From the NCBI RefSeq assembly GCF_003752415.1, contig NZ_RKHG01000001.1:434001-498000 (forward strand): a stretch of DNA of 64,000 nucleotides, in the 5' to 3' direction. The stretch comes from Luteococcus japonicus (lineage in GTDB: Bacteria > Actinomycetota > Actinomycetes > Propionibacteriales > Propionibacteriaceae). Below are positions 45,939 through 52,655 of this stretch, piece by piece. The notes beneath the pieces are model-generated. The model was given only the letters and a program-made list of their open reading frames with translations, did no database searches and was not told the DNA's origin. Numbering within the stretch: the stretch's first letter is position 1; each line of letters opens with the position of its first letter. A program made the position numbers and the translations under genes.

Positions 45939-46115
45939 GTGAAGTCCTCCCCACTGGCTGCCCTCGTCGCCCTCGTCCTCGCGCTGGTCCTGTTCTGGTT
46001 CGCCGCGCAGGGCTACAACGTGGTGCGCTGGCGCATCCGCTACATGATGCCGGCCTTCATCTCCGGCGTCCTGGTGGGCGTCGTGTCCACCCTTGTGCTC
46101 GTCGGCCGACGCTGA
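45939..46115 (+). CDS. Small two-segment membrane protein
   Basis: A 58-residue protein with two hydrophobic segments (LAALVALVLALVLFWFAAQG and MPAFISGVLVGVVSTLVLVG) and a short basic loop (RWRIRY). Start GTG 45939. No homologue recognised. Confidence 0.55.
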   Translation: MKSSPLAALVALVLALVLFWFAAQGYNVVRWRIRYMMPAFISGVLVGVVSTLVLVGRR

Positions 46116-46145
46116 GCACGCGACGGCTCGAGTAGTCTTGCCCGC

Positions 46146-46685
46146 ATGCCCCAGCCCTTTGACAAGCAATGGCTCACCGTTGATCAACAGCGGGCCTGGC
46201 GTCTGTTGTTGGTGGTGATGAGCCAGCTGCCCAGCGACCTCAATCGCCAGCTCCAGGCGGATGCGGGGCTGTCGTTCCAGGACTTCGACGTCCTGGTACA
46301 TCTGCGCGAGAGCAAAGGGAATCGATTGCGGATCGGTGAACTGGCCGAGGCGCTGGGCTGGGAACGCAGCCGCACGTCACACCATGTGGCACGGATGGGC
46401 GCTCGGGGCCTGGTCTGCCGGGAGAGGGTCGACGGCGACGGCCGGGGCGCCTGGGTCATCGCCACGGACCGTGGCCTGACCGAGCAGGAGGCGGCGGCGG
46501 CAGCCCACGTCGAACTGGTGCGACGCCTGCTGTTCACCGACATGCCGGAAGAACAGATCCACGAGCTGGGAGACACGCTGGCAGTGATCACCCGCAATCT
46601 CGGCTTCACCCCGCGGGAGATGTGGCATGTCGAGTCCAACGACGAGAATGACAAGGCACAGGAGGATGAGAGTGGCAAGCAGTGA
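46146..46685 (+). CDS. MarR-family transcriptional regulator
   Basis: A 179-residue MarR-type repressor. The winged helix appears as RIGELAEALGWERSRTSHHV, followed by RMGARGLVCRERVDGDGRGA, the wing. The C-terminal 30 residues are acidic. It overlaps the next gene (membrane protein), which it may regulate. Confidence 0.85.
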   Translation: MPQPFDKQWLTVDQQRAWRLLLVVMSQLPSDLNRQLQADAGLSFQDFDVLVHLRESKGNRLRIGELAEALGWERSRTSHHVARMGARGLVCRERVDGDGRGAWVIATDRGLTEQEAAAAAHVELVRRLLFTDMPEEQIHELGDTLAVITRNLGFTPREMWHVESNDENDKAQEDESGKQ

Positions 46686-47061
46686 AGTGGTCGGTCCGGA
46701 GGCGGACGGGACCACGTCCGGCACATGGGCCGTGGTGGTCTCCGCCTTCGCGGTGATCGCGACGGCCGCCGCCTGCGGGATCCTCTTCCGTGGCTATCTG
46801 GCGCTTGCCCGGCTGCCAGGTGAGGTGCCGCCCCTCGACCAGGTGCCCGACACGCCCCAGACCCAAGGCCCGATGCAGTGGATGCAGTTCGGCACGTGGG
46901 GCCTGGCCCTGGCTGCCCTTCTGGCACTGGTGGGCCTGGTGGCCGGCGTCCGTCTGGTGCGTCGTCCCGACGGCTTCAATCGCGGGGTCTGGGCAATTGC
47001 GCTTGCCGCGTGCACGCCGGTGCTGGCTGTGATGCTGCTGGCCGGCATGGGCGCCACCTAG
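46672..47061 (+). CDS. Membrane protein of unknown function
   Basis: A 129-residue protein with three or four hydrophobic segments (WAVVVSAFAVIATAAACGIL, FGTWGLALAALLALVGLVAG, AIALAACTPVLAVMLLAGMG). AGGAGG at 46660-46665 makes GTG 46672 the best start, overlapping the MarR stop by 14 bases. Function unknown. Confidence 0.6.
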   Translation: MASSEVVGPEADGTTSGTWAVVVSAFAVIATAAACGILFRGYLALARLPGEVPPLDQVPDTPQTQGPMQWMQFGTWGLALAALLALVGLVAGVRLVRRPDGFNRGVWAIALAACTPVLAVMLLAGMGAT

Positions 47062-47248
47062 TCCGACGGCCATGACCGACGCCTGGCAGCCGATGCTGGC
47101 CACCATGGGGAGCATGGAGGCGCTGGGTCCGGATGAGGGCCAGTGGCACTTCGAGGTGAAGTGGGACGGCTACCGCGCCCTCGTCCACCAGACATCCGAC
47201 CACAGCCTGCGACTCCGCTCCCGCGGGGGGCTGGACCTATGTTCCTCG

Positions 47249-48472
47249 TCAAGCGGCGAGGGGCATAGGTGATGGCTCTGGTGTTGGGGCGGGTGCCCGG
47301 TAGGGCTCCCGGTTCTTGATCATCGCGAACAGGACATCACAGCGTCGGCGGGACAGGCAGATGAGGGCGGCGTTGTGTTTCTTGCCCTGCGCTCGCTTGC
47401 GGTCGTAGTAGGCCCGACTGGTCGGGTCCTTCAGTGCCGCGAAGGCGGACAGGAACAGGGCTCGTTTGAGGTGCTTGTTCCCGGAGCGGGCGGGGAACTC
47501 CCCGCGGATGCTGGTGCCGGAACGGCGAGTGACCGGTGCGAGGCCGGCGTAGGCCGCCAAGTGCCCGGCGGTCGGGAACTGTGAGGCATCGCCGACGTCG
47601 AGCAGGATCCGTGCTGCGGTCCTGACCCCGACGCCTGGCATCGAGGTCAGGACCTCGGCAAGAGGGTGAGCATCAACCACTTTCTCGACCTGGACAGCCA
47701 GCTCGGCGCGCTGATCCAAGGTGGCGCGCAGCGACGCGGCCAGCTTGGGCAGGACCTGCTCGGCCGCTGCCGTGCCCGCAACGGTGACGGTCTGCTCCGT
47801 AAGAGCTTGGGTGATGGCGTCGGCGAAGTCCTGCGCGTTGCGCGGATAGGCCTTCGTGATCACCCTGAGCAGCTTCGATTTCGACGCTGCTGCCATGCCC
47901 TGGGGGCCGCCGAGTTGCTCGACAACGGCCAAGCCCTGTTTGGTGGTCAACCTGGGTCCGACAACGCGCTCCAAGGCGGGATGGATCTGGGTGAGCAGGC
48001 CGCGGATGCGGTTCGACAACCGGGTCGCCTCGGCTGCGAGGTCCTCATCGAACCCGACCAACACCTTCAACTCGGCGAGGGTTTCCTCGCCGGCATCGAC
48101 CCGGCGCAGCGTGTGGGGCATCGTCCTCGCGGCATCCGCGATGATGAACGCATCCCGGGCGTCAGTCTTCGCGTTTCCCGGATAGAGATCGGCGGCGCGG
48201 CGCATCGCCAACCCGGGCAGGTAGGCAACCTGGATGCCCATCGACCGGGCGACAGCGATCGGCAGCGCACCGATCGTGTTCGGCTGGTCAACGACAACCA
48301 GCACCCGCCCATGGGATTGGAGCTTGTCGAACAGTTCCTCGAGTCGCTTCTGGTCCTGGGGCAGGGGCTTGTCGAAGACACGTTTGCCGGCAGCATCGAG
48401 GGCGCAGGCGTGGTGGGCTTGTTTGCCCACGTCGAGCCCGCACCAGATGTCGAAACCGCTGTCCTGATTCAT
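47249..48472 (-). CDS. IS110-family transposase
   Basis: A 407-residue DEDD transposase. The RuvC-like part has GLDVGKQAHH, VVDQPNTIGALPIAVA and AKTDARDAFIIADAAR. The Tnp20 part has SMPGVGVRTAARIL and ARSGNKHLKRALFLSAFAAL, with the serine needed for the nicking step. No frameshift is seen, so it should be active. The start at 48472 (MNQDSGF) is preferred to ATG 48484. Confidence 0.92.
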   Translation of the reverse strand: MNQDSGFDIWCGLDVGKQAHHACALDAAGKRVFDKPLPQDQKRLEELFDKLQSHGRVLVVVDQPNTIGALPIAVARSMGIQVAYLPGLAMRRAADLYPGNAKTDARDAFIIADAARTMPHTLRRVDAGEETLAELKVLVGFDEDLAAEATRLSNRIRGLLTQIHPALERVVGPRLTTKQGLAVVEQLGGPQGMAAASKSKLLRVITKAYPRNAQDFADAITQALTEQTVTVAGTAAAEQVLPKLAASLRATLDQRAELAVQVEKVVDAHPLAEVLTSMPGVGVRTAARILLDVGDASQFPTAGHLAAYAGLAPVTRRSGTSIRGEFPARSGNKHLKRALFLSAFAALKDPTSRAYYDRKRAQGKKHNAALICLSRRRCDVLFAMIKNREPYRAPAPTPEPSPMPLAA

Positions 48473-48702
48473 GACGCCCACCATCCTTGCATCGAAGCGA
48501 CGGTCGTCGTGGTTGGTGATGCGTCAGCTGCCGGCACCCACGTTACGAAGAGACCTCAATGCTGGGCCGTGTCCCTATCAGCGGTCGGCTGGCGCCACCA
48601 GGCCCGGTGACAACACCCCCCGGATCATCAAAGACAGGGGCAGTAAGTCATGCCGGGCCCGGCGACCGTAACCCCGCCCTACGGGGTCACCAGCAAGGTA
48701 AC
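48473..48702 (-). ncRNA. Candidate bridge RNA region of the IS110 element
   Basis: About 230 noncoding bases lie between the transposase start and the element boundary. In the IS110 group this position encodes the bridge RNA with target- and donor-binding loops. I can see G+C-rich inverted pairs but did not derive loop positions that match the ligase target, so the call rests on location only. Confidence 0.4.
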
Positions 48703-49533
48703 GGGGCTGGACCTGGCGCCGTCCTATCCCGAGCTGCGGGAGGTGCAGGAGCTTCTGCAGGGGCAGGATGTCGTCCTCGACGGGGAGATCGTCGCGCTGA
48801 CAGCCGACGGACGTTCTGACTTCGAACTCCTGCAGAACCACGGACGGGCGGGTTCCTCGGGGGCACACCTGATGCTCTTCGACCTGCTCCACCTGGACGG
48901 TCACGATCTGCTCCGCATGCCCTACCTGCAGCGCCGCGAACTGCTCCTCGCCCTGGTTGGGAGGGGCACCGCCCATGTCCATGTGCCCGAGACCTTCGGC
49001 CCCGAGCGGGAACTCGCCCTGACCGCGAGCGGGCAGCTGCGGTTGGAGGGGCTGGTGGCCAAGCGGGTGGGCAGCACCTACCAGCCGGGGCGCCGCAGCG
49101 AGGACTGGGTCAAGATCAAGAATGTCTTCACACAGGAGGTCGTGGTGGTCGGTTGGAGTCGTGGCAGCGGAAACCGCAGTCACGGCCTCGGCTCGGTGCT
49201 ACTGGCTGTGCCTGACGAGTCAGGCGTGCTGCACTGCGTCGGCAGCGCGGGCAGTGGTTTCAGCGTCGCCGCACAGCAGGAGGCACGGGAACGGCTGGCC
49301 TTGTGCGAGGTGGACCACAATCCCGGCGTCGTGGGTGTCCGGCCCGCGGAGTCACGCGGTCTCACATGGGTCCGTCCTGGGCTGGCGGCCGAGGTCTCGC
49401 ACTCGATGTGGACCGCGGCGGGCAGGTTGCGTCACCCGGTATGGCGCGGATGGCGCGACGACCTCGACCCGATGAACATCGTGCGAGGCGAGGGCTGAGG
49501 GTCCCCGCCCCGCACGAACATCGGTGTCCGGAC

Positions 49534-51792
49534 TCAGGCAGTTGGCTCGCGCACGATCAGCGCCATGCCACCGAAGGGGGGCAGAGAGACGTGGAAGCCG
49601 CCCAGGTCATCGACATTGTCCACCTTGCGACGGGCGGACAGGTCGAAGACGCGGCCTGCGGGGATCTTGTGCGACTGGACCCGCCCCTGGATCTTCTCGG
49701 CCCCGAAGTTCAGCACGGTCACCTGGGTGGCACCGATCTCCAGCTTGTTCACCAGGACCAGCAGGGACTTGTGCGCCACCTCCGGAACGTCGACCAGTGC
49801 GGCCGACGCAATGCCATTGCGCTTGCGGATCTTGAGGATCTGCGCGAGCCGCGAGGCAAAGGAGTTCTGATTGCCCAGCTGCTCCGGGAGCGATCCATAC
49901 AGGCACCGGGCGCGCGGCATTCCCGATGAGGAGGACTCCGCCTCCGGGTTGCTGCCCAGCAGGTCATAGGCTCCACGCTCCAGCCAGCGGGTGTCACCGG
50001 TGCTGACCAGCTGCTTGACCTGCTCCCGCGGCACGGGAAGGGCCCCGACGAGGTCCCAGCCGGACAGCGCGAAGACGCCCGGCTGCCAGGCGTTGTACAT
50101 GCACAGCAGCAGGTGAGCCTGCATGATCCGCTTGACGTCGGCGTCGGTGATCTCGTCGAAGTCGGTGATGCCGAGCGTGGCCGTGATGATGGAGGCCGTG
50201 GTGCAGGCGATGCCGTTCTGGGTGAAGACGGCGTTGTAGGGGCCGGCATTGCCGGTGAGCTTCTGGCGCATCGTCTCGCGGATGTGCTCGCTCATGTCCG
50301 CACCGGTCCAGTCCTTGCCGTCAAGGTGGTAGGTCTCGTCCTTGTGGTTGTTGGCGAAGTGGACCAGCTCGTAGGTCAGCTCGTCATGGTTCTGCAGGGC
50401 ATGTACCAGGGAGGCCTGGTCGATGCCGGTCGCCGCGGCCTCGCGCAGGGTGAGGCGAAGGAACTCGCTGTCACCGGTGGCCATGGCGTACTGGTATGCG
50501 GGCCGGGTCACGAAGTCGTAGCTGAGGTCTGGGCCCACCGCGGAGGTGTTGCGAATGTCGTCCATGCCCAGGTTCATCTCCTGGAAGGTGAAACCACCCA
50601 CCTTGCGCACCATGGAGCCGATCAGCTGGTTCGCGGCCTGGCTCAGCGGGTGTCCCTCGGACCAGGCAGCGGCCTGGTCGGTGGACTTCTCGACGCCGAG
50701 GAAGCCATTGGCATCCAGTCGCAGACCACCGGAACCAAGATCCAGCAGGGAGTGCAGGGCATCGCCCATCACCAGGCGCATGCCGGCGAAGGTCGGGTCG
50801 AGCCAGTTGATGGACGGCTGGCCCTCCTTGAAGTAGTGCAGGTAGACCCAGCGACGCTTCACGCCCTTGTGGTCGTAGACCTCCGGGGTGCAGGACCAGT
50901 TGGTCTCCTTGACGCCGGGCTCGTAGAAGATGACTCGCTGCATCTCGCCGATGATGAAGCCGGCCTCGGCCAAGGCACGCTCGTGCATCGGGTCAAGGTT
51001 GACGGAGTCCTCACCGACGGGAACCTCGGGGAGCAGGTGCCAGGCATGTTCGGGGATGTCGATCATGTGGTAGATGCCTGGGTAGTCCCGGTAGTTCAGC
51101 GTCGCCAGGCGGAAGTCCGCACCCTTGCCGGTGTGGGCGGGAATGATGTCATCAATGATGGTGCCGCCGTGCTTGGAGGCGTTCTCGCACATCTCGCGGA
51201 ACTCCGCCTCGGTACCGAAGACCGGGTCCATCGCCATGCTGATCCGGTCGAAGTGACCGTCGACGCTGGGTGTGGGCTTCCAGCCTGTCACTCCACCGGC
51301 CAGCTTCACGGGACCCGTGTGGACCGCGTCGATCCCCACCTGCTCGAAGGCCTCCCAGAGAGCCTCCGAGCCCAGCGCACCCAGGAAGGACTGGCCGGGC
51401 TCGTTGATCATGCTGAGCGGATAGGCCGTGAACCAGACCGATGCGGTCTGGAGCGCGGCACGCGGGTCCGGGGCCGCGAATGGATTTGCCCACATCTGGT
51501 GGCTGCCGGCCAGCTGACGCGCCACGGTCGTGGCGTCGTGCAGCATGGACTGGCCCTCCAGCCACTCGACATAGGCATGGTTGCGCCCGTCGGCCTCGAA
51601 GGGAGGCGTCAGCGGACTGGCATCGCGCCCACCCCGGTGTCGCGTGGCCCGGGGCCGCACCATCGGGGGCCGTGCGGCGAAGCGCTGCTGCTCGAAGCTG
51701 ATCTCGGGCAGGATCTCCTCGAGCGGAACGCCCTCGGCGTTGACGTCATCGCCCTGCAGGGGCTCGGGAGTGGTGTTCTTGGGAGTGCTCAC
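49534..51792 (-). CDS. TreS-like GH13 enzyme (maltose/trehalose glucosyltransferase group)
   Basis: A 752-residue alpha-amylase-superfamily enzyme. The nucleophile aspartate is in GLRLDANGFLGVE, the acid glutamate in FQEMNLGMDD, and the third carboxylate in HALQNHDELTYEL. A C-terminal beta domain follows. Layout and length are those of the actinobacterial trehalose-synthase-like GH13 group that isomerises maltose and trehalose; the exact substrate is not proven. TAGATT upstream suggests a leaderless start at GTG 51792. Confidence 0.75.
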   Translation of the reverse strand: MSTPKNTTPEPLQGDDVNAEGVPLEEILPEISFEQQRFAARPPMVRPRATRHRGGRDASPLTPPFEADGRNHAYVEWLEGQSMLHDATTVARQLAGSHQMWANPFAAPDPRAALQTASVWFTAYPLSMINEPGQSFLGALGSEALWEAFEQVGIDAVHTGPVKLAGGVTGWKPTPSVDGHFDRISMAMDPVFGTEAEFREMCENASKHGGTIIDDIIPAHTGKGADFRLATLNYRDYPGIYHMIDIPEHAWHLLPEVPVGEDSVNLDPMHERALAEAGFIIGEMQRVIFYEPGVKETNWSCTPEVYDHKGVKRRWVYLHYFKEGQPSINWLDPTFAGMRLVMGDALHSLLDLGSGGLRLDANGFLGVEKSTDQAAAWSEGHPLSQAANQLIGSMVRKVGGFTFQEMNLGMDDIRNTSAVGPDLSYDFVTRPAYQYAMATGDSEFLRLTLREAAATGIDQASLVHALQNHDELTYELVHFANNHKDETYHLDGKDWTGADMSEHIRETMRQKLTGNAGPYNAVFTQNGIACTTASIITATLGITDFDEITDADVKRIMQAHLLLCMYNAWQPGVFALSGWDLVGALPVPREQVKQLVSTGDTRWLERGAYDLLGSNPEAESSSSGMPRARCLYGSLPEQLGNQNSFASRLAQILKIRKRNGIASAALVDVPEVAHKSLLVLVNKLEIGATQVTVLNFGAEKIQGRVQSHKIPAGRVFDLSARRKVDNVDDLGGFHVSLPPFGGMALIVREPTA

Positions 51793-51812
51793 CCACCACA
51801 ATCTAGTGGGTC

Positions 51813-52655
51813 TCAGCGACGGTTGCGGAGCTTCATCAGTTCCCGATGCTGGGCCGCACTCAGCGACTCCATACCCTTCTCACTGATCAGATCCAGCAGC
51901 TCGTCGAGGCGGGCATCATCCTTGGCACGCGACGCCTGACGCTTGGCCTGTTCCTTGGCCGCGCGAGTGGGTCTGCCCGGCTTGGCGGGACGAGAGGCCG
52001 AGGCCAGGCGGGGGATCCAGTCGTAGTCTCGCAGGAGGCCGAGGCGACGGGCGATCAGGGCGACGAGCACGAAGGCCAAGGCCATCTCCAGCAGCCCGAA
52101 GACGTTGCGCCCGGCCAGCATCTGGAGTGCCTGCACCCCCACCAGGACGGCGCCGATCAACCATGCCGGGATGCCGAAGAAGAAGGGTCGCCTGGGGTAT
52201 TCGGCAATCCAGAGCAGCAACACGATGAACTGCACCATGCCGATCCCGGCCAAGGCAGCCCACGAGTTGAGGCCGAGCCCGACGATGGTGGCGGCCACGG
52301 TCAGGGCTGCCCAGATCCCGACCAGCAGGCGGGCCATCCGCGCCTTGCCGATCTGCACCTCCAGTTCGGTGCCGAAGATGTAGAAGAAGAACAGGTTGAG
52401 CACGTCCCAGATGCTGATCTGGTTGGCCAGCGGCCAGCTCACCACCCGCCAGACCTCACCGTTCAGCACCTGATGGGGAGTGAACATGAACAGTTCCGCC
52501 AGACCAGTGCCGCCGGTGGACATCGTCACCAGCACGTCGACGATCCAGGAGATCAGCACGGCGCCGACGACTAGCAGGGTGGTGCCCACCTCTGTGCGTC
52601 CAGCCTTGAACCAGTGGTCCCGCAGGTCATTGCCCTTGGAGAAGTATCCGCTCAC
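51813..52655 (-). CDS. Rhomboid-fold membrane protein without catalytic serine
   Basis: A 280-residue membrane protein with six hydrophobic segments. NGEVWRVVSWPLANQ and LFFFYIFGTELEVQIG match the rhomboid fold, but the GxSG motif and the catalytic histidine are not visible, so it is likely a pseudoprotease. The C-terminus ends with a small domain (LDELLDLISEKGMESLSAAQ). GGGAGA upstream of GTG 52655 decides the start. Confidence 0.7.
   Translation of the reverse strand: MSGYFSKGNDLRDHWFKAGRTEVGTTLLVVGAVLISWIVDVLVTMSTGGTGLAELFMFTPHQVLNGEVWRVVSWPLANQISIWDVLNLFFFYIFGTELEVQIGKARMARLLVGIWAALTVAATIVGLGLNSWAALAGIGMVQFIVLLLWIAEYPRRPFFFGIPAWLIGAVLVGVQALQMLAGRNVFGLLEMALAFVLVALIARRLGLLRDYDWIPRLASASRPAKPGRPTRAAKEQAKRQASRAKDDARLDELLDLISEKGMESLSAAQHRELMKLRNRR

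What the first reader, a model, noticed from the sequence alone, without database searches (positions are those of the whole stretch)
48473..48702. Candidate bridge RNA upstream of IS110 transposase
About 230 noncoding bases upstream of the transposase is the established location of the bridge RNA in the IS110 group. The target is known here (GGGGCTGGACCT site), so guide loops can be searched against a defined sequence.
Basis: inference. Interest (0 to 1): 0.5.

Follow-up and report, generated by a model that had tools for sequence, protein, structure and literature searches.

The report
Guide RNA of an insertion element
The stretch upstream of this mobile element's recombinase gene encodes a bridge RNA, the guide that tells IS110-type elements where to insert; in relatives its guide loops change in step with the DNA they should pair with, but this copy has lost the end sequence that its own RNA should recognise.

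Summary
On the minus strand, about 48689-48521, the DNA predicts a 5' stem-loop, a target loop and a donor loop upstream of an IS110-group recombinase (47249-48484). In 31 sequences (the window and 30 relatives) 96.1% of the cells of 32 pairs are paired and 15 pairs show changes on both sides; 0 of 500 shuffles did as well. [quoted passage not shown] On a tree this rests on few independent changes. The target loop specifies a C run; relatives with A-rich guides sit in a T run. The rest is a 12-bp repeat seen only here. The left donor of this copy (CATAGGGACACC in relatives) is replaced by a copy of the target (1 of 94 loci tested), so this copy is probably immobile. RNA expression is untested.

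The parts
47239..48702 (-). IS110-group element, from RD (GTTACC, starting at 48702) to the last element base before the target-derived patch; core CC at 48703-48704
   Evidence: junctions aligned with relatives; occupied/empty comparisons in relatives
47249..48484 (-). IS110 recombinase, 411 aa; D18, D66, D108, D111 and S322 conserved
   Evidence: Pfam; S322 aligned with the IS621 serine S241; alignment of 12 sequences
48521..48689 (-). bridge RNA, predicted extent (true 5' and 3' ends not known)
   Evidence: covariation, covariance model 166.8 bits (the window was one of the model's own sequences)
48669..48689 (-). 5' stem-loop
   Evidence: a stem folds upstream of the model match in 85 of 99 loci at z below -1.5 against simple shuffles
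48593..48664 (-). target-binding loop: outer stem 48664-48653 with 48607-48598, inner stem UGAC/GUCA
   Evidence: helix 1: 97.2% of cells paired, 6 pairs with changes on both sides
48637..48642 (-). LTG, TGCCCC (left target guide; would match GCC plus core CC)
   Evidence: left-junction pattern in relatives; weak, see membership test
48616..48621 (-). RTG, GGGGGG (complement of core CC plus CCCC)
   Evidence: right junctions of 69 relatives: 55 match the RTG at 6 of 6 bases, 11 at 5, 3 at 4
48521..48595 (-). donor-binding loop: outer stem GCGCCAGC/GCTGACGC, inner stem-loop 48568-48552
   Evidence: helices 3 to 5
48569..48578 (-). LDG, ATAGGGACAC; identical to the LD of relatives, not to the right end of this copy
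48538..48547 (-). RDG, CGTAACGTGG; GTAACG is complementary to CGTTAC at the left end
   Evidence: in the window alone this 6-nt match is reached by 175 of 2000 shuffles
47227..47238 (+). GGGGCTGGACCT, target-derived copy at the right end of the element, in place of LD
   Evidence: only such copy among 94 loci tested
48703..48714 (+). GGGGCTGGACCT, target at the left junction (left target and core)
47244..47253 (-). CTTGACGAGG, possible -35 (TTGAC) that a circle would bring near the left end
47072..47238 (+). N-terminal part of the interrupted ATP-dependent DNA ligase gene
   Evidence: read directly from the sequence; not searched on its own
48715..49498 (+). C-terminal part of the interrupted ligase gene
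   Evidence: Pfam DNA_ligase_A_M and DNA_ligase_A_C in the ORF 48650-49498

Best explanation
The region encodes a bridge RNA of an IS110-group element. Shown by sequence: a 5' stem-loop, a target loop and a donor loop; in relatives, donor guides that are identical or complementary to the two ends of the element, and a right target guide complementary to the sequence at the right junction. Inferred: as in IS621, the RNA binds the recombinase and aligns the circular element (CATAGGGACA-CC-GTTACC) with a target of the form GCC-CC-CCCC, strands are exchanged at the core, and transcription starts from a promoter made when the ends are joined. In the window copy the left junction is canonical, but the left donor at the right junction has been replaced by a copy of the target, giving a 12-bp repeat. 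The RNA looks intact, but it should no longer recognise its own right end, so the copy is probably stranded in the ligase gene.
For: Structure: 32 pairs, 96.1% of 992 cells paired against 89.6% in shuffles, 15 pairs with changes on both sides, 0/500 shuffles as high on any of five measures; slid controls 28-46% paired. The covariance model finds it in 29 of 391 genomes of the order and 42 of 394 of the class. LDG and LD agree at both variable positions in 49 of 49 distinct guide sets that could be read, of 76; with three ends found by hand, all 73 loci readable agree, in four LD classes. RD and RDG agree in 69 of 69 at one position and 65 of 69 at the other. RTG: among 69 loci 55 match at all six bases, and no permutation of 5000 does as well; L020 (AAAAGG), L186 and L338 (AAAAAG) sit in a T run, which is uninterrupted in 18 of 20 loci examined for L186. 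Core CC: the empty site of L148 is C8 in two genomes, where 4 and 6 C flank the insert. The window's LDG matches canonical LD over 10 nt, 0 of 2000 shuffles.
Against: On a tree of 64 recombinases LD and LDG each need only 4 changes; two independent pairs per position agree, too few for a significant sign test. The RTG permutation rests on few non-G guides and ignores kinship; L160, L033, L173, L179 (CGGGGG) and L040 (GTGGGG) match their right flanks at 4 or 5 of 6 only. Left-target bases from the third outward carry at most 0.36 bits, so LTG pairing is weaker than in IS621. In the window alone, RDG and target matches are no better than chance by shuffling (175, 1119 and 1112 of 2000), and its right end does not fit its LDG. 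Register within C runs is ambiguous. Four of 69 guide sets break the second RD position. No RNA data.
Confidence: 0.93

Rival explanations
1. The stretch is a structured 5' leader that controls translation of the recombinase and does not guide anything.
For: It lies directly upstream of the gene and is strongly structured.
Against: A leader does not predict that loop bases change with the element ends (49 of 49) or with the target.
Confidence: 0.03
2. The conservation reflects DNA-level end recognition by the recombinase; LDG and RDG are internal repeats of the ends bound as DNA.
For: LDG and RDG are repeats of the ends, and their joint changes are few on the tree.
Against: Changes on both sides in 15 of 32 helical pairs, and the A-rich RTG with T-run targets, which is a relation to the target and not to the ends.
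Confidence: 0.02
3. GGGGCTGGACCT is the ordinary target of this element, duplicated at insertion as a normal target site duplication.
For: The 12-mer is at both junctions.
Against: No other of 94 loci tested has such a copy at its right end; 67 of 99 loci carry the canonical LD there, with 26 not found by the scan; targets of relatives share the C run only; Siddiquee et al. [quoted passage not shown]
Confidence: 0.05

Closest known systems
IS621 bridge RNA (IS110 group; PMC11208160, PMC11208158)
   Same: RNA in the left end upstream of the recombinase; 5' stem-loop, target loop, donor loop; LTG and LDG read the bottom strand, RTG and RDG the top strand; 2-nt core; junction promoter likely; catalytic serine conserved.
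   Different: Core CC (likely) and not CT; target is a C run with little left-target information; RTG covers core plus four bases where IS621 uses core plus two; the second acidic residue is D66, by spacing the place of E60 in IS621; sequence search matches the C-terminal domain only.
ISEc21 seekRNA (IS110 type; PMC11187229)
   Same: Upstream noncoding region and a promoter made in the circle; it targets a conserved part of another element's transposase gene, as the T-run relatives do here; natural redirection is reported for its relative ISMch6.
   Different: Different target; no sequence or guide comparison with ISEc21 was made here.
IS1111 group
   Same: Same family of recombinase and RNA-guided principle.
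   Different: Its noncoding region is downstream of the gene; here only about 10 element bases follow the stop codon.

Membership tests
IS110 group element | DEDD/RuvC domain followed by Transposase_20 domain with catalytic serine | tested here: met
   S322 aligned with IS621 S241; D66, D108, D111, S322 invariant and D18 nearly so in 12 sequences; D66 at the place of E60 judged by spacing only
IS110 group element | long noncoding region upstream of the recombinase, short right end | tested here: met
IS110 group element | no target duplication on insertion | tested here: not met
   12-bp repeat in the window copy; no such copy in the other 93 of 94 loci tested, L049's match lying outside the element
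IS110 bridge RNA | 5' stem-loop, then two stem-loops with internal loops | tested here: met
IS110 bridge RNA | LDG identical to LD, covarying | tested here: met
   49 of 49 readable guide sets; not met by the right end of the window copy itself
IS110 bridge RNA | RDG complementary to RD, covarying | tested here: met
   69 of 69 and 65 of 69 readable guide sets
IS110 bridge RNA | RTG complementary to core and right target, covarying | tested here: met
   69 loci: 55 at 6 of 6, 11 at 5, 3 at 4; 0 of 5000 permutations; A-rich RTGs in T runs
IS110 bridge RNA | LTG identical to left target, covarying | tested here: inconclusive
   little information beyond the bases next to the core; C runs make the register ambiguous
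IS110 bridge RNA | promoter formed at the RE-LE junction | tested here: inconclusive
   TTGAC upstream of LD in 73 of 73 scanned ends, but the scan gave it a bonus; spacing to TAnnnT would be 18 or 19 in a CC-core circle
IS110 bridge RNA | RNA is made and co-purifies with the recombinase | not testable with these tools
   no expression data held
IS1111 group | noncoding region downstream of the recombinase | tested here: not met
   element ends about 10 bases beyond the stop codon
IS1111 group | subterminal inverted repeats of 7 to 17 bp | tested here: inconclusive
   longest exact inverted match between the two outer 60 bases is 7 nt, GGGCGGG, not tested against chance

The most novel reading that the evidence does not exclude
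The window copy records an abnormal outcome of bridge-RNA recombination: left junction exact, right junction joined to the target upstream of the core through a shared AGG, which erased the donor site and repeated 12 bp of the target. If such resolution is a property of these enzymes at poorly matched right targets (here 5 of 6 bases), IS110 elements would immobilise themselves by losing LD.
Probability: 0.2. Interest if true: 0.5.

Novelty: new member of a known kind. Interest (0 to 1): 0.4.

Why it matters
It adds a well-supported actinobacterial branch of bridge RNAs with a likely CC core and homopolymer targets, and natural guide changes that go with changed ends and targets. These are ready-made test pairs for how guides and DNA are matched, and the altered copy suggests one way in which such elements become fixed.

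Tried and rejected
Rfam at gathering thresholds over 46000-52000: no match. Fold of the window sequence alone: weak z-score, not used as evidence. A first target model with four donor Cs (note) was dropped after the empty sites of L186 and L148. Symmetry of the inverted repeat around L168 was considered for counting Cs and judged undecided. L053 differs from its homologues by nine bases between two C runs; a deletion before insertion and guides using two C runs cannot be told apart. Branch migration in register as the cause of the window's right end was considered and does not fit, because the shared AGG lies at different distances from the core. Elements with other RTGs (L057, L194, L204, L022, L189) gave no usable right end. 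A search of the sister genome and other relatives for the uninterrupted ligase gave only diverged homologues. One paper search with words for homopolymer tracts and IS110 matched 433 papers, of which I saw the 15 listed; among these only the two bridge RNA papers also hold IS110, so I make no claim that C-run targets are unreported.

Full report
What is there. The recombinase gene lies on the minus strand at 47249-48484 and has both IS110 domains. Reading the minus strand, the element begins with GTTACC at 48702 and interrupts an ATP-dependent DNA ligase gene whose halves lie at about 47072-47238 and 48715-49498 (the N-terminal half was read by eye only). A phmmer search of solved structures finds IS621 (8wt6, 4.9e-17, query 235-402) and ISCro4 (9t56, 1.6e-14, query 264-402), and one marginal hit to another protein (4noc, 0.0049); the IS621 alignment puts S322 opposite what I take for the catalytic serine, after correcting for two extra residues in the chain (numbering from passages of PMC11208158). 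D66, D108, D111 and S322 are invariant and D18 nearly so in 12 aligned sequences, the window included. The spacing D66 to D108 equals that of E60 to D102 in IS621, so I read D66 as the E60 position; I did not align the N-terminal domains.

Relatives. A scan of named genomes gave 37 loci with a related recombinase, and 67 of 198 genomes of the family hold a DNA match to the element, many of them short. Left and right ends were compared for copies that reach them. The left ends share GTTACC, with a few variants, and a conserved leader; most right ends share CATAGGGACACC followed by a C run. The window copy reads CATAGGTCCAGCC instead.

RNA structure. RNAalifold on 35 sequences gave 34 pairs, 20 with a compensated change. 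I wrote a structure of 32 pairs that leaves out guide-to-guide pairs and counted it on 31 sequences: 96.1% of cells paired, 67 cells with changes on both sides against 19.7 in shuffles, 0 of 500 shuffles as high on any measure; sliding the partners by one to three columns drops pairing to 28-46%. The structure was derived from these sequences, so the slid control leans in its favour. The covariance model built from it found 29 of 391 genomes of the order and 42 of 394 of the class, the window's own genome counted in both, and a match in each of the 99 loci that I then gave it, which had been chosen because they hold the element. The 5' stem-loop lies outside the model; the 30 bases upstream of it fold at z below -1.5 against simple shuffles in 85 of 99 loci.

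Donor guides. The donor loop of the window holds ATAGGGACAC (48578-48569), identical to the LD of relatives over 10 nt; none of 2000 shuffles of that donor does as well. Across relatives LD comes as AGGGAC, AGGGGC, AGAGGC and AGAGAC, and LDG follows. Of 76 distinct guide sets among 99 loci, 49 had both parts readable by pattern and all 49 agree at both variable positions. The pattern would have dropped an LD outside those forms, and it drops the window copy. With L163, L195 and L197, whose right ends were found by hand, 73 loci are readable and none disagrees. RD and RDG were readable in 69 of the 76 sets: 69 agree at the second base and 65 at the sixth; L011, L018, L033 and L082 are the exceptions. 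On a quick recombinase tree of 64 rows LD and LDG each need four changes, and the independent pairs (two per position) all agree, too few for the sign test. The agreement is complete but rests on few independent events. In the window alone the RDG match (6 nt) is reached by 175 of 2000 shuffles.

Target guides. In the commonest guide type, the five bases after the assumed cut are C in 20 to 22 of 22 relatives, the window left out, while bases to the left from the third outward carry at most 0.36 bits (in which the window is one of 23). The RTG of that type is GGGGGG. Over all 69 loci with a readable RTG and right flank, the flank matches the complement of the RTG at six of six bases in 55, five in 11 and four in 3, and none of 5000 permutations does as well; the permutation ignores kinship and depends on few unusual guides. 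L020 (AAAAGG, flank CCTTTT) and L186 (AAAAAG, flank CTTTTT) match fully; the guides CGGGGG (four loci) and GTGGGG (one) match at four or five. A further relative, L338, has AAAAAG and a CTTTTT flank. L020, L186 and L338 lie inside what looks like the transposase gene of another element; calling it IS5-like is my recollection. For L186 the site is uninterrupted in 18 of the 20 loci examined, and in 17 of these 18 it reads C4 or C5 followed by at least four T, L221 being the exception. The empty site of L148 is C8 in two genomes at 97% identity, while four and six C flank the insert, which gives a two-base core, CC. L053 fits the same count if nine bases between two C runs had been lost. Homopolymer length can change, so the core assignment is likely and not proven. 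In L186 itself the count fits if the native run was C4 with a C/T mismatch at the core, or C5 with a one-base core.

The window copy. Diverged homologues of the ligase (L228, L229) align without a gap across the run, which suggests a native C6; that also keeps the reading frame. The left junction is then AG-CC-CC-GTTACC, in keeping with the LTG (TGCCCC); core and right target read CCCCGC against the CCCCCC that the RTG predicts. The right junction should read CATAGGGACA-CC and instead continues from CAT into the target at AGG. Of 94 loci tested, only the window has a copy of its left flank at the element's right end; L049 has a match outside the element. Among the 99 loci the right end was canonical in 67, lacked one A in 3, was a sequencing adaptor in 1 (recognised from memory), a bare C run in 1, the target copy in 1, and was not found by the scan in 26, three of which were found later. 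Most likely this copy can no longer be excised by its own RNA. The cause is unknown; a join through the shared AGG is one possibility.

Comparison. Order of parts, position and pairing scheme are those of the IS110 bridge RNA (PMC11208160: abstract and outline, passages, sections 6 and 12; PMC11208158: passages). Siddiquee et al. [quoted passage not shown] I therefore file this as a new member of a known kind. Expression, RNA-protein binding and recombination remain untested.

Noticed in passing
L016, right end of the element: The contig runs from CATAGGG into a sequence that looks like a transposon-based library adaptor (from memory), so this public contig end is probably an artefact.
   Followed up: no
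L053 against L247-L257: The target allele lacks nine bases that homologues have between a C5 and a C4 run; either a prior deletion made C9 or the two target guides used two C runs.
   Followed up: partly
L168: Insertion lies in one arm of a long inverted repeat that looks like a terminator hairpin.
   Followed up: no
L339, L340, L341: The same transposase site (GTTCGCCCCC) is followed by other sequence, and a related bridge RNA lies about 1.4 kb away; arrangement not understood.
   Followed up: no
L148 and L149 (G122:C1:1613205-1613352 and 1614812-1614959): Two copies with equal bridge RNA scores lie in opposite orientation, their bridge RNAs about 1.5 kb apart.
   Followed up: no
L080 (own genome, G000:C1:2595838-2596576): A second, partial copy in the window's genome with a bridge RNA that still scores 130.6 bits.
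   Followed up: partly
L012, L034, L192: Right ends lack the last A of LD (AGGGAC-CC or AGGGGC-CC), as if a target base had replaced it or one base were lost.
   Followed up: partly
L180: Right end reads CATAG followed by a long C run, so most of its LD is missing; cause not known.
   Followed up: no
L064, L065: Flanks hold what looks like an interspersed repeat (around TTCGACAAGCTCA or its reverse complement).
   Followed up: no
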